From Thermofilaceae archaeon (GTDB taxonomy: Archaea; Thermoproteota; Thermoprotei; Thermofilales; Thermofilaceae), in the NCBI GenBank assembly GCA_027027675.1, contig JALVKT010000078.1:1-37249 (forward strand): a DNA stretch of 37,249 nt, read 5' to 3'. Position 1 is the stretch's first letter, and each line of letters starts with the position of its first letter. The notes under the pieces were generated by a model that did no database searches, was not told where the DNA came from, and was given only the letters and a program-made list of their open reading frames with translations. The position numbers and the translations under genes were made by a program. Below are positions 15,311 to 26,783 of this stretch, piece by piece.

Positions 15311-15364
15311 GAAATAAGGATGCGTCCGGCCTTTTTATCGAAAACTGATGTTTCACCGAGAAAG

Positions 15365-16111
15365 ATGCGTGTGGCGGCTTTTCTAAGCGGTAGTAAGGGT
15401 GGCACGGGTAAGACTACACTCTGTACTCTCACGGCTATAGAGCTTTCGCGGCGCTCCCTGGACGTCTTAATTATAGACTTGGGTGAAAGCGGTAATGCGA
15501 CCTCCCTTTTAACAAGGGGGGTTGAGCCTCCCTATTTTACCGACTACTTGGCCGGCAAGGCGCAGTGGGGCGATACGATAGTGGAGGTTAGAGAGCATCT
15601 TTACCTCGCGCCCACGCCGCCCGACTTTTCACTGGCCGAGGCTAAGGTTCTATTAGGCTCCAACGCTGCAGCTCTGGAGAGGTATTCTGAGTTCCTAGCT
15701 GTTATGGCGGACTACGTTGACGTCGTCTACTTGGACTTCCCAGCTTTTCCCTTTAAGAGCTATGGGCACCTGCTTTCACCCGTAGATACATCTGTTCTCG
15801 TCATAAACCCTGATCCCCTGAGCTTTGCGGCTGCTCTCCACACGTATACAGGCTCCTCATACGTGCTTCCTGTTTTAAACAAGTATCACCCAGCCGCTTC
15901 TTACTGGAGGGACACGGTTGAAGACTCGTTTAACAATGTTGTTATCATACCGTTCGACGTGACGCTTTCATTCCTTGTTAAAGAGTCCATCTTTGAGGCT
16001 GAAAGGTACCTGGAAAGTGACACTCGAAAGGCATTGGCCGAGCTGGCAGAAAAACTGGCGCGGCCTGGCGGTAAGCGTGTCCAGCCTTATAAAGCTCCTC
16101 TACAGCATTGA
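15365..16111 (+). CDS. ParA/MinD-like deviant Walker A ATPase (ORF track start 15320)
   Basis: MRVAAFLSGSKGGTGKTTLCTLTAIELSRRSLDVLIIDLGESGNATSLLTRG. Confidence 0.85.
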   Translation: MRVAAFLSGSKGGTGKTTLCTLTAIELSRRSLDVLIIDLGESGNATSLLTRGVEPPYFTDYLAGKAQWGDTIVEVREHLYLAPTPPDFSLAEAKVLLGSNAAALERYSEFLAVMADYVDVVYLDFPAFPFKSYGHLLSPVDTSVLVINPDPLSFAAALHTYTGSSYVLPVLNKYHPAASYWRDTVEDSFNNVVIIPFDVTLSFLVKESIFEAERYLESDTRKALAELAEKLARPGGKRVQPYKAPLQH

Positions 16112-16118
16112 ATGAGCC

Positions 16119-16472
16119 GTGATGAGACGCCCCTTTTCCAGCGCAACAGTTAAGGAAGCCGGCGTGCACGCCCGTTCTAGCCCAGCTCAGCGGCTCCCAC
16201 TACCAACGCCCAGGCCTGTAGCCGAGAAGCCGGCGCCAGCGACGAAGAAGCTGGCACCTATAAGTCGTGAGAAACTCGAGACTGCGAAGCGTCTACTCGA
16301 GGACGTGGGCATCGATCCCTCGATACTTGAAAAGCTCGTTGGTAGGATAAAAGACATAGACTCGGAGATTGAAGAACTTGAAGAAGAAATTCGGGTGGCA
16401 AAAGCCAGGATCAGAGACTTGGAAGAGGAGAAGACCCGCATTTACCGTGTTCTCTCAAGCTTTATAACGTGA
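16119..16472 (+). CDS. Coiled-coil hypothetical protein
   Basis: Pro/Ala-rich N-terminus then heptad-like KIKDIDSEIEELEEEIRVAKARIRDLEEEKTRIYRVL; between a ParA-like and a secretion-ATPase gene on the same strand. Confidence 0.65.
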   Translation: MMRRPFSSATVKEAGVHARSSPAQRLPLPTPRPVAEKPAPATKKLAPISREKLETAKRLLEDVGIDPSILEKLVGRIKDIDSEIEELEEEIRVAKARIRDLEEEKTRIYRVLSSFIT

Positions 16473-16478
16473 TATAAA

Positions 16479-17690
16479 ATGTTTTTTATAAAACTTCGTA
16501 GGCGCCTTAAATTTAACAAGGAGCCTAAAACCACTGCTCCCCCGGCTCCCGAGCCACCCAAGGGGCAGGTAATATGCGATACAGCAACGGGAAAAGTGTT
16601 GCTACGCGACGCATACATACATGTAGAGGCGGGCGAAGACTGGGAAAAGTTTCTCTCACTACTACGCTGCAGACAGATATACGAGGTATTCCTCACAAGC
16701 AGTTCAGCAGTAGTATCCCTCAAGTCGTGGGGCCGCACCTCTCTCAGCCACCCGCTAGACATAGAGCGCCTCCTTCTACACTTGATAGAGGAGACCGGGG
16801 CAAGAGTTGACCTCAAACAGCCATACACACAGCTAGAGTACCTGGGATGGCGAATCTTTGTACAACTCGACATAAGCGGCCAACTCGAGATAACAGCGAC
16901 AAGGATCCACGACGTCCCCCCGCTCAGAGAACTCGTAGACCCTTTACTCGCAGCCCGTATACTAACCCTACTCATGGCCCCCAGCACTGTCGTAATAGCC
17001 GGCCCCCCGGGGTCGGGGAAGACGACTCTGCTAAACTCTATCATAGTGGAGGCGGCGTCGCTATGGCCCCACCTGCACATCGCGGTAGTGGAGCCCGTAA
17101 AGGAGCTCGTACTGAACGGCGGCTGGGCATCCCGCATGGTAGGCGACATTTCACACTCAACCAGGCTCACTGTACGATTCAAACGCCCAGACATACTAGT
17201 GGTGGGCGAACTCCTAACAAGCGACGTCTGGAGCTTCATCGAGGCCGGCCGCAGCGGCGTACCCACAATAAGCACCTACCACAGCCCCAACATCTGGAAA
17301 TGCCTACGCAGCATGGCGGACGCCCTCAGAATACACATCCCCGACGCCACAGAACTTACAGTGCTACGCTACATAGACGCTTTCATCATAACAAGGAAAA
17401 CAATAAGCCCCACCTCAACAACTAGACACATCGACTCCATATACATGAGCGACGGCCAACGCCTAATACCACTATACACGAGCGGCCCGCCAGAGACGCA
17501 CATCACAGAGGAAATCTTCCTAGACCTCCTCCCGGAAAACTCCCTCCTAGGCCCCACAGCCACCATCTACTCCACCCTAAAGACACACTACAAGGTCCCG
17601 CTCCAATCCCTACGATTCGAAAAGCTACCACCACTCTCAATAAAAACCAGGCCTCTCGACAAACTAAACAATCCGGTAAAACACAGGTAG
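16479..17690 (+). CDS. Type II/IV secretion-system (GspE/TadA/FlaI superfamily) ATPase
   Basis: Walker A VIAGPPGSGKTTLLNSIIVEA, Asp/His box-like IAVVEPVKEL, DILVVGELLTSDVWSFIEAGRSGVPTISTYH. Confidence 0.85.
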   Translation: MFFIKLRRRLKFNKEPKTTAPPAPEPPKGQVICDTATGKVLLRDAYIHVEAGEDWEKFLSLLRCRQIYEVFLTSSSAVVSLKSWGRTSLSHPLDIERLLLHLIEETGARVDLKQPYTQLEYLGWRIFVQLDISGQLEITATRIHDVPPLRELVDPLLAARILTLLMAPSTVVIAGPPGSGKTTLLNSIIVEAASLWPHLHIAVVEPVKELVLNGGWASRMVGDISHSTRLTVRFKRPDILVVGELLTSDVWSFIEAGRSGVPTISTYHSPNIWKCLRSMADALRIHIPDATELTVLRYIDAFIITRKTISPTSTTRHIDSIYMSDGQRLIPLYTSGPPETHITEEIFLDLLPENSLLGPTATIYSTLKTHYKVPLQSLRFEKLPPLSIKTRPLDKLNNPVKHR

Positions 17691-17964: not shown

Positions 17965-18543
17965 ATGCCCATACCCTCGCCCGACGAGCTCAAAGCCCTT
18001 AGACTCCGCGCAGGCCTAACCCAGACCGAACTGGCGCGCCGCGCAGGCGTAAGCCAATCCCTCATAGCGAGGATCGAAGCCGGCAAGGTAAACCCGCGCG
18101 TCTCAACACTCATGAAAATATACCGTGCCTTACAAGAATTCGTAAGCGAACAGTTAACAGCGGAAAACATAATGTCAACACCCCTAGTCTACGTGACGCC
18201 TGACACTAAACTCATGAAAATCGCGGAAATAATGTGGAGGAGAGGCTTCAGCCAACTCCCCGTCATGGACGACAAAGCCAGAAAAAACCTCGGCACAGTG
18301 TTTGACAACGACCTCATCAGAGCATTCCTCAAAGAAGACACCCGCGCGGCTACACTTACAGCAGAGGACATAATGTCAGACCCCCTACCCATAGTATCGC
18401 ACAGCACTAGGCTACGCATAATAGCGCGGATGCTATCCTACGAGACACCCGCGGTGCTCGTAGAGAAAGAGATGAAAATAGTAGGAATAATAACCAGAAG
18501 CGACATAGCCAAAATACTCGTCCACACGCGAGAAAAAACCTAG
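17965..18543 (+). CDS. XRE-type HTH plus CBS-pair transcriptional regulator
   Basis: LRLRAGLTQTELARRAGVSQSLIARIEAGKVNPRVSTLMKI then two CBS motifs (AENIMSTPLVYVTPDTKLMKIAEIM; AEDIMSDPLPIVSHSTRLRIIARML). Confidence 0.93.
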   Translation: MPIPSPDELKALRLRAGLTQTELARRAGVSQSLIARIEAGKVNPRVSTLMKIYRALQEFVSEQLTAENIMSTPLVYVTPDTKLMKIAEIMWRRGFSQLPVMDDKARKNLGTVFDNDLIRAFLKEDTRAATLTAEDIMSDPLPIVSHSTRLRIIARMLSYETPAVLVEKEMKIVGIITRSDIAKILVHTREKT

Positions 18544-18548
18544 CGCGC

Positions 18549-18923
18549 CTATACACGCCTCATAACAACCTTCACACGATACCTAGTATTAGGCCTCCTA
18601 CCCTTCTTAACCAACCGCCCCTCCTTCACAAACCTCGACACATACGTCGACACACTTGTAATCCTAAGCCCGGGTATCTCACGCCTAGCAACATTATAGA
18701 GGTCCTTTATAGAAAACCAGGTGCCATCACCAAAGTTCTCCGCTATCAACGACCACAGCCTCGCACGCAGACTCCCACCGGACTCGCCACCACCAGCCCC
18801 CTTCATCAACCTGAGCATCTCCAATACCTGCAAAACCCTCTTCTCGTCTACATCACCCTCTAACACAATAGAGATCTTCTCACCATCATCCAAGTAGTCC
18901 TCGATCTTTATCTTAGGGGGCAT
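18549..18923 (-). CDS. Hypothetical protein with C-terminal winged-helix-like domain, flanking the candidate origin
   Basis: LRARLWSLIAENFGDGTWFSIKDLYNVARREIPGLRITSVSTYVSRFVKEGRLVKKGRRPNTRYRVKV; TATATAT about 30 nt upstream of its start. Confidence 0.6.
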   Translation of the reverse strand: MPPKIKIEDYLDDGEKISIVLEGDVDEKRVLQVLEMLRLMKGAGGGESGGSLRARLWSLIAENFGDGTWFSIKDLYNVARREIPGLRITSVSTYVSRFVKEGRLVKKGRRPNTRYRVKVVMRRV

Positions 18924-19110
18924 TGCTCCACATAATCCTCAACCCCACCATATATATCACAATCTCTTCTGAATAAAACATGAATAAACATGAAACCACG
19001 TTACCATGCCTCTACAAGCATCCATCACAATAATCTCCACCGCTAACCAAGAAAAGAGATAGATAATCTAGAATATGGCATGTTACAGCAAAGATATTTC
19101 TCTGTAAACA

Positions 19111-19134
19111 GTTCCAGTGGAAATAAAGGGGTTA
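19111..19134 (+). repeat. ORB-like repeat 1: GTTCCAGTGGAAATAAAGGGGTTA
   Basis: 22/24 identical to repeat 2 on the opposite strand. Confidence 0.8.
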
Positions 19135-19207
19135 TTTAAACCCCCATATACTTTCCACATGAAACACGAATAATGAATATGCTCCCACAGCACCGCATAA
19201 TCTTCCC

Positions 19208-19231
19208 TAACCCCTCTACTTCCACTGGAAC
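19208..19231 (-). repeat. ORB-like repeat 2: GTTCCAGTGGAAGTAGAGGGGTTA
   Basis: Inverted relative to repeat 1, two mismatches. Confidence 0.8.
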
Positions 19232-19306
19232 CTCCTTTACTTAACCTCACCTAGAGAGTACCATACTAACTAACTATACACTTACACCACAAGTTTCACA
19301 TGACAA

Positions 19307-19330
19307 CTTCCACACGAAGAAAAGGGGTTT
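19307..19330 (+). repeat. ORB-like repeat 3: CTTCCACACGAAGAAAAGGGGTTT
   Basis: 17/24 identical to repeat 1; TTCCA, GAA and AAAGGGGTT blocks retained. Confidence 0.65.
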
Positions 19331-19352
19331 ACCGCTTCAAGCCCAACATTAG

Positions 19353-20996
19353 ATGAGCAAAGAATTTAAGACAACGCAATTTTCAGCCATCCGAGGATAT
19401 ATTATGGATAGCTTATTTTCGAGGATCTACGTGTTAGACACCTCCTCTATACTACACGGAACGGCGAGGAGAGCCATAAGTGAGGGGAAAATAGCGGGAA
19501 AACTCCTCATACATACATATATTGTAGACTACTTTGAAGCACTCTCCCGTAAGGGAAGCAGCAAGGGAATAAACGGTCTAAAAGAACTAGAGCTTATCCG
19601 CAAGGCAGCGGAAGAAGCCCAGGAACTCGTAGAACTGGAATACACTAGTGAGATGCCCGACGGATACCGCAGGACCCGGGACTTGGATCCCGACGTAGTC
19701 GCGAGAGCTGTAGCGCATGAAATAGGCGGCACCCTGGTTACCTCTGACGAGGTTTCACGGGTCGCTGCTGAGGCGCTCGGAATAGATACTCTCTACCTAG
19801 AGCCTGGTGGAGGTAGATTTGAGCTAGAAAAGTTCTTTGAGCCCGATATAATGTCCGTCCACCTGAAAGAGGGCGTGCCTCCACACGCCAAAAAGGGGGT
19901 GCCTGGCAAGTGGGAGTTTATTACACTGAGAGAAGAGCCTGTGACGAGGGAAGAGCTCGAGGAGATAATACGCCAGATACTTGAAAGAGCAAAAGGCGGC
20001 GCCAGTGACTCATTCATAGAGGCCGAGCGGCCAGGGTCAACCATAGTCCAGCTCGGGGTTTACAGGATAGTTATCACTAGGCCGCCCTTCTCCGACGGCG
20101 TAGAGGTCACCGCTGTACGACCAGTGGCCCGGCTCAGACTGGAAGACTACAAGCTGCCCAAGAAGCTCGTGGAGAGGCTGGAGAAGAGGGCTGAAGGCAT
20201 ACTGATAGCCGGCGCCCCGGGAATGGGTAAAACAACATTCGCGCAGGCGCTCGCGGAGTACTACCATAGGAAAGGGAAGATAGTCAAAACAATAGAGTCG
20301 CCGCGCGACATGCACTTACCGGACGAGGTCACCCAGTACTCTAAGAACTATGCTACGTCCGAGGAGATACATGACGTCTTGCTCCTCTCGAGGCCCGACT
20401 ACACGTTCTTCGACGAGATGAGGGATACAAGGGACTTTGAGCTATACGCCGACCTGAGGCTCGCAGGCGTCGGAATGGTAGGCGTGGTTCACGCCACGGC
20501 GCCTATAGATGCTATACAGAGGTTTATAGGGAGAGTCGAGTTAGGAATGATACCCTCCATCATAGACACAGTGATTTACATCAAGAACGGGCGTGTCGAA
20601 AAAGTGTATTCACTGGAAACCACGGTAAAGATACCTCATGGGCTTAAAGAGGCAGACCTGGCTCGGCCAGTAGTGGTCGTGAAAGACTTTCTCACCGACA
20701 AGCCTGAATACGAGCTTTACGTGTTCGGCGAGCGCACCTTCGTCGTCCCGGTGCGCCGAGCCGGCATTAAGTTAAGCGTCAAAGAGTACAAGGTTAAGTC
20801 GCTGCTTGAACGGGCGCTGAAAAGATACCTACCCGACGAAGAGTTCGACGTAGAAGTCGACCCGGCCAGGTCTCTCGTCACAATAAGGGTGCCGGCGGAC
20901 CTTTACAACTACGTCCTCGGCAAGCCGAGGAAGAGACTAGAAAAGCTGTGTAGGAAACACGGCTTTGAGATGGAGCTCGTGCCCCGGGTAGAATAA
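19353..20996 (+). CDS. PIN-domain/VapC-type ATPase (PINc + PilT-like ATPase + KH-like C-terminus)
   Basis: YVLDTSSILHG PIN motif, GILIAGAPGMGKTTFAQALAEYY Walker A, PDYTFFDEMRDTRDFELYADLRLAGVGMVGVVHA; start may be ATG 19404. Confidence 0.9.
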   Translation: MSKEFKTTQFSAIRGYIMDSLFSRIYVLDTSSILHGTARRAISEGKIAGKLLIHTYIVDYFEALSRKGSSKGINGLKELELIRKAAEEAQELVELEYTSEMPDGYRRTRDLDPDVVARAVAHEIGGTLVTSDEVSRVAAEALGIDTLYLEPGGGRFELEKFFEPDIMSVHLKEGVPPHAKKGVPGKWEFITLREEPVTREELEEIIRQILERAKGGASDSFIEAERPGSTIVQLGVYRIVITRPPFSDGVEVTAVRPVARLRLEDYKLPKKLVERLEKRAEGILIAGAPGMGKTTFAQALAEYYHRKGKIVKTIESPRDMHLPDEVTQYSKNYATSEEIHDVLLLSRPDYTFFDEMRDTRDFELYADLRLAGVGMVGVVHATAPIDAIQRFIGRVELGMIPSIIDTVIYIKNGRVEKVYSLETTVKIPHGLKEADLARPVVVVKDFLTDKPEYELYVFGERTFVVPVRRAGIKLSVKEYKVKSLLERALKRYLPDEEFDVEVDPARSLVTIRVPADLYNYVLGKPRKRLEKLCRKHGFEMELVPRVE

Positions 20997-22316: not shown

Positions 22317-23591
22317 ATGTCTGTTGACGAGTACAGGAGGAAGTATGCTTACGGGGAAGACTACGGGACCAGCCACTTCAAGTTCGGCCCCGTAGCTGAG
22401 AAGCCCCACGTGATCGAAAACCGGGGCTTATTCCTAGGTGGGGAATCGAAGGTCTTGCTAAAACTCTTTGGAGTGGATAGGGAAGTGATAGTGGGGCCGG
22501 AGATAGTCAGGTATCTGGGGAGCATCGAGGACGTGTCAAGGCACCTTATATACCCGATGAGGGACGGCGTGGTCGCGAAGGACGATGAAAGGGCTTGGCG
22601 AGTCCTATATGAGTTGACCAAGTACGGCTTCTCTCTCACGAAGCCCGACGCGAGCGATTTCCAGGGGTTCTATGTGACGGCCGCGCTCTCCGCCGTGGCG
22701 CCGGACTATATGATAGAGAAGCTGTTCGAGATTCACGCGCGGATAGATGGCGAGATGAACGTGGTGAAGGCGTTCACAGTGATACCTCAGCCGCTTGCGG
22801 TCGCCATAGCGGAGAAGACCATAACATGCGTTGTCGTCGAGTCGGGGCATGGGAACACACAGATAACTCCGATATCCATGTATCCGATAAGGGACGCCGC
22901 GGTTGTCCTCAACAGGGGTGGTGCTGAAGCCGACGCCATGGCAGCGGAGGTGTTAAGGGATCTCGGTCACGAGGATCTCGCCAGAGAGGAGAAGTTTGTG
23001 AGGATGTTCAAGGAGGCTGTAGGGCTTGTGCCCCGTAGCCTAGACGAGGCCATAGAGGCTGCTAAGAGGGAGCCTGAAAGGTTTAGGACAGTGTTCAAGG
23101 TTCCGGGCACCAGGATTGAGGTTGACCTTGGCGAGCGGGCATGGATGCGTTTCCTGATTGGAGAGGTTCCCTTTAACCCCGAGCACGAGATATTTGAGAG
23201 CTACTATAAGAGGGGCATGCCCAGGCCCCGGGACACCGTGGTGGGCGGGGAAAGAGTGAGGGGGACAATGCCTCTCGGCGAGGCTATTAGTCTAAGCGTG
23301 TCTAAGACGAGCATTGAACTGCAGCCTAGTCTTTACAAAAGGGTTATCCTAAGTGGCGGGAATTTTGCATGGAAAGTGCCTCCAGGGCTTGAGGATGTGG
23401 CGGTGGATAGCGCCGAGAAGGTGCGTCTACAGCTCCTAGACTTTGGGATTGAAAGTGAGGTGTCCCTCGTAGAAGACCCCCTATACTCTGTGTGGAAGGG
23501 GACTATAGTTTACAGCCTCGCCGTTCCCGACGAGTTTGAGTGGGACTGGAGCCGCCGTGAAGGGTGGTTTAAGAGGGGTATACACTACTGA
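22317..23591 (+). CDS. Crenactin (archaeal actin homologue)
   Basis: Actin-like phosphate loops and layout: VIPQPLAVAIAEKTITCVVVESGHGNTQITPISMYPI, LNRGGAEADAMAAEVL, KRVILSGGNFAWKVPPGLE, PLYSVWKGTIVYSL. Confidence 0.9.
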   Translation: MSVDEYRRKYAYGEDYGTSHFKFGPVAEKPHVIENRGLFLGGESKVLLKLFGVDREVIVGPEIVRYLGSIEDVSRHLIYPMRDGVVAKDDERAWRVLYELTKYGFSLTKPDASDFQGFYVTAALSAVAPDYMIEKLFEIHARIDGEMNVVKAFTVIPQPLAVAIAEKTITCVVVESGHGNTQITPISMYPIRDAAVVLNRGGAEADAMAAEVLRDLGHEDLAREEKFVRMFKEAVGLVPRSLDEAIEAAKREPERFRTVFKVPGTRIEVDLGERAWMRFLIGEVPFNPEHEIFESYYKRGMPRPRDTVVGGERVRGTMPLGEAISLSVSKTSIELQPSLYKRVILSGGNFAWKVPPGLEDVAVDSAEKVRLQLLDFGIESEVSLVEDPLYSVWKGTIVYSLAVPDEFEWDWSRREGWFKRGIHY

Positions 23592-24263
23592 GTGCGCCAC
23601 TATTTTTATTCTCCCGAACAAGGGTTAGACTTTGAGTATATCATGTCCACCAGGGCCCGAGTGTTAGCGCTCCTAAAGGAATTCTTTACGAAGAGGGAGA
23701 TGGAGGTTGAGGAGGGGGGCAGCCTAGATCTATCTGTAAAGGACGGTAACAACCTCGTAGGGGTAAAGGTCTCCCTAGGCCCACTTGTGAGGAGGGACGT
23801 GGAAGAACTTATGGTGAAAGCGCCGGAGCTGGAATATGATAAGCTCTACATAGCGGTGCCTGCGAAGTATGTCTCCATGCTTCCACCCCTAGATATAATC
23901 CGTGAGGCGGGTATAGGAGTGCTTGAGGTTTCCTCGGACACTGTCAGGGTGCTCGTATTCCCCCGTTCCAGGAGGGCCGGGCATAGGGGAGGAGTGCCTC
24001 GTGAAGAAATAGCTGAGCTTAGGGCAGAAGTAGAGCGGCTGAAAGACGAGGTTAGAAGGCTTAAAGGCGTAGTTGCCAGGGTTGAGAGCCTGGAGCGCAG
24101 ACTCGCCGCGTTGGAGAGGCAGAAGAGAAGGGGTATGGCCGCACCAGTTCCAAAAGCCAAGGTCACCGTAGAAGGGGTTACGGAGAAAAGCCCTGAAGGC
24201 GTGCCCAGCTTTGCCGCAGATAACCCGTGGCTTACAATACTTTCAAAGAGGGGGGAGAAGTGA
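23592..24263 (+). CDS. Coiled-coil protein downstream of crenactin, candidate arcadin-2-like (likely start ATG at 23643)
   Basis: N-terminal globular region, coiled coil EEIAELRAEVERLKDEVRRLKGVVARVESLERRLAALERQ, linker, then short C-terminal motif FAADNPWLTILSKRGEK. Confidence 0.6.
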   Translation: MRHYFYSPEQGLDFEYIMSTRARVLALLKEFFTKREMEVEEGGSLDLSVKDGNNLVGVKVSLGPLVRRDVEELMVKAPELEYDKLYIAVPAKYVSMLPPLDIIREAGIGVLEVSSDTVRVLVFPRSRRAGHRGGVPREEIAELRAEVERLKDEVRRLKGVVARVESLERRLAALERQKRRGMAAPVPKAKVTVEGVTEKSPEGVPSFAADNPWLTILSKRGEK

Positions 24264-24463
24264 GTGAAGAAGAAGAGAAAAGGGTCATAGGTAGGGGTGT
24301 CGAAAAGACAATCAGAAAATACATTAAGGAAGAAGACGGGGAGTGCGAGGAGCTGGCAATAACTATACTTGAAACATACGCATTCGGAGGTCAACGCGCG
24401 CTCAGGGAGCTCCTCGAGAAAATGCTGGGAGGTGTAAAGAGTGGTAACGCTGAGGAAACTTGA
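24260..24463 (+). CDS. Small helical protein in crenactin cluster (arcadin-3 candidate); GTG start overlapping upstream stop
   Basis: MSEEEEKRVIGRGVEKTIRKYIKEEDGECEELAITILETYAFGGQRALRELLEKMLGGVKSGNAEET; overlaps both neighbours. Confidence 0.65.
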   Translation: MSEEEEKRVIGRGVEKTIRKYIKEEDGECEELAITILETYAFGGQRALRELLEKMLGGVKSGNAEET

Positions 24464-26783
24464 GCTTGAGGGTTTTCGCTACTATAAGGACAGGTTCACG
24501 GTGGAGTTTCCTCCCGGCATCACAGTGATAGCGGGCCCCGTGGGTAGCGGGAAAAGCAGTCTTCTTGAAGCCATAGAGTACGGGCTTTTCGGGACAGACT
24601 TTGGGCTGCGGCGGCGCATGTACTCTAAGGAGGACCTTGTGAACGCGCAGAAAGGGAGGCTTCGCGTTGTCTTAGAAATAGAGGCGGAGGATGGTGTTTA
24701 CTTGGTCGAGAGGAGGTATAGCTTAGACGAGGGGGAGAAGGTTCTTCTGAGAACGCCTGACGGTGAAGAGTTTCGGAGGAGGGGAATTGTAAATGAGATG
24801 ATAAGGGAACTCCTCGGCCTAGACGTTATAGAGTATGAGAGAACGGTCTACTTAAACCAGGTGTACCTTTACCTGCTAGCCTACGGCTCCCCCGGCGTGA
24901 GGAGCCGCGTGATAGACGGGCTGCTCGGAATAGACGCCTTGGAGAGGATTGCGTCGATTATTAGGAGGTATTCCCGGGTAGTGGGGAGGAGACTTGAAGA
25001 AAAAAGGTCGGAGCTAAGGGAGCTTATCGAAGAGCTGGAGAGCGTTGAAGAGGAGGCCCGCCGTCAAAGAGAGGAAAACACAATATTTGAGAGGGAATTA
25101 GAATCGCTTCGTGAAAGGCTCGGCGAATTAGAAGAGGAAGCTGAAGAGTTAGAGAAAAGGATTGCGGAGCTGGCAGGAGTCGAAAAGGAGTTTTTCAGGC
25201 TTAGAGGAGCTCTCGAGTATCTTAGAAGGGAGGTTAGAGGCCCTATACCCCCGGTAGAAGAGCTTATAGGGGAAATTGAAAGATCGAAGAATCTGTTGCG
25301 GACGATTTTTGCCGAGTTGATACTGGAGGAGAAGCTTAAAGAGGTGGAGGAGCTTGAATGCTCCAAGGAAAACCTACGAGGATGTGTTGAAAAGCTGCGT
25401 AGCGCGTTGGAAGAAGCCTGGGAAATATACAATAAAAGAATAGAGTCAATAAAAGCGTTGAACGTAGAGGTTGAACGGAGAAGAATTCTTCTCTCCGAGC
25501 TTGAAAAGAAAATACTAGAGCTGGAGCCCCTGGTAGACGAGTATGAAAAGGCGGAGCATAGGCTTGAAGCAATTATGAGAGAGTATGGGAGCGACGATGA
25601 GCTGAGACGTAAACTGCGGGAACTGGAACTCGAGTCTAAGAAGCTTGAAGCTAGACAAATGGAGAATAGGTGCATATCGTTTCTGCGTCGCCGCCTACGT
25701 AGGGAGGTCGCCAGCAAGGGTAAGGCTCGGTGCCCAGTCTGTGGCGCCGAGGTTGACTGGGAGGTAGAGCCGTTAATAGTTGAGGAGGATTATACGGTAC
25801 AGGCCCTTGAAACAAAGATTGCGGAGATAAGGAAGATCCTTGACGAAATAAAAAGCCTAAAAGTAAAATTAGTTGACTATGAGGAAGCTGTATCACAGTA
25901 TAAGGCCCTCCTTGAAAGGAGGGAGGAAATTCTAGCCGAGATAGACAGGCTTAACGCGGAGATCGCTCAGGCAGAGATAAGGTATAAGGAGATTGGAAGC
26001 CGCCTTGTAGACGTAGAGAGAAGCTTAGCGCTCGTCCGAGAGGCTTTGGAAAAACACTCTAAGGCTGCGGAGATGGCGGAGCTAGAGGCGAAACTTGAAG
26101 CCCTCCAGAAACAGTATAGCATGTTAGAACATTTACGTAAGAAATATAAAAACATAGTGAATGAAAAAGCAGAAATAGAAAAAAGGATAATGTCCCTCGA
26201 GGCGGAAATAGAGTCACTGCATAGCATAGAATCGGAGATAGAGTCTTTGAAGTCAAAGCTGTCTCAAATAGAGAAGGAAGAGAGGGCGCTCGAAGACCTT
26301 CAAAGAAAGCTCGACTGCGCCTTCAAGTTATACAAGAGCGTCCAGTTCAAGATAAGAAGGGATCTTGTAGAAAGAATAAGCGAGTACATGCGCTTAATCC
26401 TTTCCAGGGTGTATCCCTACAGGGACCTCGAAGACGTCAGGCTAAGCGTCGAAGAAAAAGAGGGAAAAAGCGTTTACACGGTCGAGGTTAAAATGAACGG
26501 TGAATGGAGCAACTTTTCGGCGAGGCTCAGTGAAGGGCAAAAAACCGTTGTTATATTGTCGCTACTCCTCTCATTCTATAAAACAGTTAGCCATAACGTC
26601 CACTTCCTCCTACTAGACGAGCCGGTGCCCAACGTCGACATACGCGTCAAAGAGTCGATATTCAGGGGCGTCTCGGAGGTACTCGGCGTAAAGCAGGTAG
26701 TATTTACCACTCAGAGCGTAGACGCGGCTAAAAAGGCGGGGAACATTCACGTGGTAGAGCTTGCGCGGAGAGAGGTGGCCTAG
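24441..26783 (+). CDS. Rad50/SMC-like ATPase with zinc hook (arcadin-4-like)
   Basis: VIAGPVGSGKSSLLEAIEYGLFG, long coiled coil with CPVC hook (ARCPVCGAEVDWE), SARLSEGQKTVVILSLLLSF signature, HFLLLDEPVPNVD. Confidence 0.85.
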   Translation: MVTLRKLELEGFRYYKDRFTVEFPPGITVIAGPVGSGKSSLLEAIEYGLFGTDFGLRRRMYSKEDLVNAQKGRLRVVLEIEAEDGVYLVERRYSLDEGEKVLLRTPDGEEFRRRGIVNEMIRELLGLDVIEYERTVYLNQVYLYLLAYGSPGVRSRVIDGLLGIDALERIASIIRRYSRVVGRRLEEKRSELRELIEELESVEEEARRQREENTIFERELESLRERLGELEEEAEELEKRIAELAGVEKEFFRLRGALEYLRREVRGPIPPVEELIGEIERSKNLLRTIFAELILEEKLKEVEELECSKENLRGCVEKLRSALEEAWEIYNKRIESIKALNVEVERRRILLSELEKKILELEPLVDEYEKAEHRLEAIMREYGSDDELRRKLRELELESKKLEARQMENRCISFLRRRLRREVASKGKARCPVCGAEVDWEVEPLIVEEDYTVQALETKIAEIRKILDEIKSLKVKLVDYEEAVSQYKALLERREEILAEIDRLNAEIAQAEIRYKEIGSRLVDVERSLALVREALEKHSKAAEMAELEAKLEALQKQYSMLEHLRKKYKNIVNEKAEIEKRIMSLEAEIESLHSIESEIESLKSKLSQIEKEERALEDLQRKLDCAFKLYKSVQFKIRRDLVERISEYMRLILSRVYPYRDLEDVRLSVEEKEGKSVYTVEVKMNGEWSNFSARLSEGQKTVVILSLLLSFYKTVSHNVHFLLLDEPVPNVDIRVKESIFRGVSEVLGVKQVVFTTQSVDAAKKAGNIHVVELARREVA

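What the first reader, a model, noticed from the sequence alone, without database searches (positions are those of the whole stretch)
18924..19352. Candidate chromosomal replication origin with ORB-like elements in both orientations
The intergenic gap contains GTTCCAGTGGAAATAAAGGGGTTA (19111-19134 +), its near-exact inverted copy (19208-19231 -, 2 mismatches), and a third copy CTTCCACACGAAGAAAAGGGGTTT (19307-19330 +). A short dyad TTCCA-nnn-GAA followed by AA(A)GGGG(TT) matches the architecture of archaeal Origin Recognition Boxes bound by Orc1/Cdc6 (established for Sulfolobus, Aeropyrum and Pyrococcus). The spacing of roughly 100 bp, mixed orientation and AT-rich setting between divergent genes fit an origin. 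No orc1/cdc6 gene is in the window, so this may be an origin not linked to its initiator.
Basis: partly seen in the sequence, partly recalled or inferred. Interest (0 to 1): 0.88.

Follow-up and report, generated by a model that had tools for sequence, protein, structure and literature searches.

The report
Archaeal replication origin detached from initiator
This gap between genes is almost certainly a place where a heat-loving archaeon starts copying its chromosome, and comparison with hundreds of relatives shows that such origins very often sit beside an unstudied small DNA-binding protein gene, which is a new candidate player in starting DNA replication.

Summary
Three ORB elements (19111-19134 +, 19208-19231 -, 19307-19330 +) lie 97-99 bp apart, and there are no comparable sites elsewhere in the 1.26 Mb draft genome. 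The first element matches the published archaeal ORB consensus letter for letter. The organism is a Thermofilaceae-type archaeon.

The origin reading is strongly supported by comparison. The same +,-,+ ORB triplet recurs upstream of orthologues of the left-hand gene (a 124-aa winged-helix protein) in nearly all relatives that have it. ORB1 sits a median 190 nt from that gene's start across the phylum. Outside Thermofilaceae the other side of the gap is usually orc1-1, head to head with the winged-helix gene. In a genome of the size of Nitrosopumilus maritimus, this junction is where the literature places the single origin. In Thermofilaceae, orc1-1 has left and the ORBs and winged-helix gene have stayed.

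The new element is the winged-helix family: found in 200 of 300 sampled genomes of the phylum, usually single copy, often origin-linked, and not described in the literature I could search. Its role is inferred only. No read-depth or binding data exist here.

The parts
18924..19352 (.). Intergenic replication origin (predicted), between divergent genes
   Evidence: 3 ORBs unique in the genome; homologous gap carries ORBs in relatives
19111..19134 (+). ORB1; exact fit to the DoriC common ORB motif; core starts 189 nt from the winged-helix start codon
   Evidence: matrix score 37.7; spacing to gene conserved
19208..19231 (-). ORB2, inverted
   Evidence: matrix score 34.1
19307..19330 (+). ORB3
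   Evidence: matrix score 25.4
19232..19306 (.). ORB2-ORB3 spacer, candidate duplex-unwinding element (inferred)
   Evidence: In relatives this spacer is the most AT-rich part (mean GC 0.26 over 52 loci); here GC 0.39
18549..18923 (-). Small protein, 124 aa: N-terminal strand-strand-helix plus C-terminal winged helix; origin-linked family
   Evidence: Family in 200 of 300 phylum genomes; model pLDDT 78.7; no curated family
17965..18543 (+). Cro/CI-type HTH plus CBS protein, tail to tail with the winged-helix gene; conserved neighbour in Thermofilales
19353..20996 (+). PINA-type ATPase (PIN + ATPase + KH), occupying the place orc1-1 has elsewhere
   Evidence: NF010335 E 4.6e-210 (above cut-off), NF053733 PINA E 9.5e-179 (below its cut-off)

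Best explanation
This is a chromosomal replication origin of a Thermofilaceae archaeon. Orc1-1, made from a distant gene, binds the three ORBs. The inverted ORB2/ORB3 pair with the AT-rich spacer between them is the core where two MCM helicases are loaded facing each other. ORB1 lies at a fixed distance (about 190 bp) from the gene of a small winged-helix protein. The likely ancestral layout in the phylum is: winged-helix gene, ORB1, ORB2, spacer, ORB3, orc1-1. In Thermofilaceae orc1-1 moved away and PINA or other genes took its place. Shown by sequence: the ORBs, their conservation and order, the gene linkage, the correspondence of the displaced Orc1-1 to the linked one. Inferred: that it fires; that the winged-helix protein acts at the origin, most likely by binding palindromic sites beside the ORBs to regulate or assist initiation.
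For: Unique ORB triplet in the genome. The +,-,+ triplet is upstream of orthologues of the left gene throughout the order. In 54 loci not used to build the matrix there are 114 ORB hits in the 1.5 kb upstream of the gene, against 0 in reversed controls; 40 loci have two or more. ORB1 distance is median 190.5 nt, quartiles 176-199, over 64 loci; +,-,+ order in 48 of 78. Orc1 lies head to head with the winged-helix gene within about 1 kb in 32 of 54 loci outside the family, plus 3 more across the ends of single-contig genomes. The linked Orc1 is always closest to this genome's C180 Orc1. One of these genomes is 1,645,259 bp, the size given for N. maritimus (1645 kb, one origin; PMC5333045), and PMC5797428 places that origin between the last gene and cdc6, beside the ORB repeats. 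ORB1 equals the DoriC common motif (PMC4164010). GC skew and gene orientation change from negative to positive at the site in three sampled relatives.
Against: No read depth, binding or replication-intermediate data. Skew support is weak: keto-skew side effect t = 2.4 and GC-skew side effect t = 1.8 after allowing for gene orientation, sampled at about 25% of each genome. The spacer here is only moderately AT-rich. The genome is a 76% complete draft, so other origins may be missing. Some families have the winged-helix gene without detectable ORBs or orc1 nearby (L209-L211, L215, L216, L223, L224).
Confidence: 0.92

Rival explanations
1. The ORBs are an Orc1-bound control region for the winged-helix gene (and for PINA), not an active origin; replication starts elsewhere.
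For: ORB1 keeps a fixed distance from the winged-helix start; ORB3 ends 22 nt before the PINA start codon, so Orc1 binding would affect transcription. Orc1-1 is unlinked.
Against: Orthologous gaps carry orc1-1 on the other side and, in the N. maritimus-sized genome, coincide with the reported origin. No other ORB cluster exists in the available genome. Skew and gene orientation flip here in relatives.
Confidence: 0.05
2. It is one of several origins in this genome, and a secondary or dormant one.
For: Three Orc1 genes are present; relatives often have three; the sampled keto-skew of G012 hints at a second switch near its coordinate 0.
Against: Only this ORB cluster is found in the genome; it is the cluster kept across the phylum and matched to the Orc1-1 type.
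Confidence: 0.15
3. The winged-helix protein is an ordinary local transcription regulator (for example of its own gene or orc1-1) that stays linked only because it shares a promoter region, and has no direct part in initiation. (This concerns the protein, not the origin.)
For: Fold matches are generic repressor winged helices such as Fur, MarR and MecI, with no E-value below 0.001. TTCACAAGTGAA-like palindromes often lie within 60 nt of the start of its open frame.
Against: It keeps its position by the ORBs even where orc1-1 has left. The paralogues in G024 each keep their own ORB cluster.
Confidence: 0.4

Closest known systems
Sulfolobus oriC1 / Orc1-1 (ORB origin)
   Same: Three ORBs; an inverted pair flanks an AT-rich spacer; recognised by an Orc1-1-type initiator (PMC12141716)
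   Different: There orc1-1 is adjacent; here it is on another contig and the neighbour is PINA. The weak winged-helix hits in the f13 family are not beside ORBs or orc1.
Nitrosopumilus maritimus single origin
   Same: Winged-helix gene, ORBs and orc1 in the same head-to-head layout in a genome of its size
   Different: Detected ORBs in these ammonia oxidisers are mostly two in the same direction (+,+) rather than +,-,+; orc1 is linked there
WhiP / Sulfolobus oriC3
   Same: A winged-helix protein gene beside an origin
   Different: WhiP is described as a distant Cdt1 homologue and oriC3 lacks ORB and miniORB (PMC4010727; PMC5333045); this origin has canonical ORBs. Sequence relation to WhiP not tested.
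UBP, the ucm-binding protein of Sulfolobus
   Same: Small (111 aa) origin-associated DNA-binding protein; its gene is said to be a recent acquisition in Desulfurococcales and Sulfolobales, and analogues in other lineages are called for (PMC12141716)
   Different: UBP is a strand-swapped protein that grips DNA with beta-hairpins; this one is predicted strand-strand-helix plus winged helix
Ori-Finder 2 / DoriC archaeal ORB motif
   Same: ORB1 fits the common motif TCCA[CG]T[TG]GAAA[TC][GA]AAGGGGT exactly
   Different: The tool lists Orc/Cdc6, WhiP and primase as origin neighbours, not this winged-helix family

Membership tests
Archaeal ORB-type replication origin | Several ORBs with dyad and G-string | tested here: met
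Archaeal ORB-type replication origin | Inverted ORBs around an AT-rich unwinding region | tested here: met
   Order +,-,+; spacer GC 0.39 here, 0.26 on average in relatives. AT-richness here is moderate.
Archaeal ORB-type replication origin | Cognate Orc1-1 encoded in the genome | tested here: met
   C180 Orc1, E 1.9e-131, counterpart of origin-linked Orc1
Archaeal ORB-type replication origin | Initiator gene adjacent (typical, not obligatory) | tested here: not met
   No orc1 in the window; found on other contigs
Archaeal ORB-type replication origin | Skew or gene-orientation switch at the site | tested here: inconclusive
   Consistent sign in three relatives but weak statistics
Archaeal ORB-type replication origin | Marker-frequency peak, Orc1 binding, initiation point | not testable with these tools
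   needs cultures or purified protein
WhiP-type origin (Sulfolobus oriC3) | Origin lacks ORBs | tested here: not met
   This origin has three canonical ORBs
WhiP-type origin (Sulfolobus oriC3) | Sequence relation of the neighbouring protein to WhiP/Cdt1 | not tested
   No WhiP sequence or model was at hand
UBP | Beta-hairpin DNA grip and C-terminal strand swap | tested here: not met
   Predicted winged-helix fold instead; no solved structure matched by sequence profile

The most novel reading that the evidence does not exclude
The small winged-helix protein is a phylum-wide, previously unnamed origin factor. It binds palindromes next to the ORBs and helps load, place or restrain MCM together with Orc1-1, filling the role that UBP or WhiP has in Sulfolobales.
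Probability: 0.45. Interest if true: 0.82.

Novelty: new variant of a known kind. Interest (0 to 1): 0.66.

Why it matters
Archaeal origins are usually found by looking beside orc1/cdc6. Here the initiator gene has left and a different gene marks the origin, giving a rule that finds origins in draft genomes across much of the phylum: look for the winged-helix gene and the ORB about 190 bp upstream. It also points to one specific small protein as a testable origin factor in lineages without a known UBP or WhiP, a question the UBP paper left open.

Tried and rejected
RNA or tRNA feature in the gap: none in the window. UBP homology: rejected on predicted fold. Solved-structure relatives of the winged-helix protein by sequence: none. 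Fold search gave only generic winged helices, none below E 0.001. MCM-type winged helix: weak Pfam similarity only (best E 2.5e-5 to WHD_MCM8 in one member), not used as evidence. Weak profile hits in the f13 and f9 families (E about 1e-5 to 1e-4) cover mostly the winged-helix part; the f13 hits have no ORB or orc1 beside them, so I treat them as unrelated or unproven. Two region requests failed on length and were corrected. A conserved ucm-like motif in the ORB2-ORB3 spacer was sought; nothing clearly exceeded shuffles.

Full report
What is in the sequence. The gap 18924-19352 lies between a leftward gene (18549-18923) and a rightward gene (19353-20996). It holds three origin recognition boxes at exactly the stated places. 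They are unique: 3 hits in the window against 0.12 expected, and one further 3-mismatch hit in the rest of the 1.26 Mb draft genome. The first element fits the published DoriC common ORB motif at every position (PMC4164010).

The host. The window is contig C78 of a 198-contig draft genome, 76% complete. So the host is a Thermofilaceae-type archaeon.

Conservation. In relatives the same pattern finds ORB clusters, and these lie beside orthologues of the left-hand gene. Read away from that gene, the order is ORB +, ORB -, ORB +. In most Thermofilaceae the spacings are about 97-110 and 88-104 bp. In more distant genomes ORB1 stays near the gene while the ORB2-ORB3 pair moves away as a unit (ORB1 to ORB2 up to 767 bp), with an AT-rich spacer. 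This marks ORB2-spacer-ORB3 as the core, with the same inverted arrangement around an AT-rich region as ORB2-DUE-ORB3 of Sulfolobus oriC1 (PMC12141716).

Phylum scale. A profile of the left-hand protein (alignment) finds a match in 200 of 300 genomes of the phylum, usually one copy. I fetched 60 loci, 54 of them outside the family. In 32 of the 54, orc1 lies head to head with the winged-helix gene within about 1 kb; in 2 it is about 3 kb away; in 3 the pair is split by the ends of single-contig genomes. Further pairs appear in G233, G066 and G073. Matrix scanning of the 54 loci, none used to build the matrix, gives 114 ORB hits against 0 in reversed sequence. ORB1 lies a median 190.5 nt from the gene start, quartiles 176-199, over 64 loci.

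Link to a reported origin. The family containing G143 carries archaeal AmoA, so it consists of ammonia oxidisers. G143 is 1,645,259 bp with the winged-helix gene at its end and orc1 at its start.

Initiator. This genome has three Orc1 genes on contigs C180, C6 and C50. Every origin-linked Orc1 in the other lineages matches the C180 protein best of the three. No ORB is found near C180, and its upstream sequence reads into other genes. In the complete relatives G006, G008, G010 and G012 the same Orc1 is about 40-90 kb from the ORB cluster. So orc1-1 left the origin in this lineage. G024 has two further clusters in the presumed ancestral layout: winged-helix gene, ORBs, orc1.

Composition. GC skew and gene orientation change from negative to positive at the site in all three. 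After allowing for gene orientation the side effect is weak (keto t = 2.4, GC t = 1.8). This agrees with an origin but does not prove one.

The winged-helix protein. It has no curated family and no solved relative by sequence. The model (pLDDT 78.7) shows two strands and a helix, then a winged helix. Fold matches are generic repressors. Palindromes are over-represented around the ORBs compared with mononucleotide shuffles, for example TTCACAAGTGAA at 30-fold over the rest of the loci with one mismatch (9 sites against 3), and TTGTTAnTAACAA in ammonia oxidisers. Palindromes of group-specific sequence are what a dimeric DNA-binding protein that diverged with its sites would leave. This is exploratory, the motifs were chosen after looking, and it does not prove that this protein binds them.

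Neighbours. On the gene's other side an HTH-CBS gene is conserved in Thermofilales. PINA, Alba and the actin-like gene follow the origin in the window and in several Thermofilum-like genomes, but PINA was not found beside the cluster in G005 or G013. The conserved unit is therefore the winged-helix gene plus ORBs.

Literature. Papers found on archaeal origins name Orc1/Cdc6, WhiP and UBP as origin proteins; none that I could search mentions this winged-helix gene. The library lacks most subscription papers, including the original N. maritimus mapping, so prior description cannot be excluded.

Verdict. The more interesting result is the phylum-wide winged-helix gene that marks the origin. Its role is inferred from linkage alone.

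Noticed in passing
window 22317-26783: Actin-like gene (Pfam Actin, E 1.7e-12), a coiled-coil gene and an SMC-like gene form what looks like a crenactin cluster about 3 kb from the origin.
   Followed up: partly
window 15320-17690: ParA/MinD-like ATPase, a coiled-coil protein and a VirB11-like ATPase in a row near the origin; a possible segregation module.
   Followed up: no
L070, L071 (G024:C137, G024:C130) and L061 (G024:C45): One genome has three winged-helix paralogues, each with its own ORB cluster; two also have an adjacent orc1. Could be plasmids, integrated elements or contamination (7%).
   Followed up: partly
window 19153-19168: TTCCACATGAAACACG between ORB1 and ORB2 looks like an ORB dyad without its G-string (mini-ORB-like); may be chance.
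   Followed up: no
L185-L238, upstream of the winged-helix gene: Palindromes TTCACAAGTGAA / TTCACAnnnnTGTGAA and, in ammonia oxidisers, TTGTTAnTAACAA are concentrated in the origin gap.
   Followed up: partly
L209-L211, L215, L216, L223, L224: Families where the winged-helix gene is present without detectable ORBs or orc1 nearby; either different boxes or a moved gene.
   Followed up: partly
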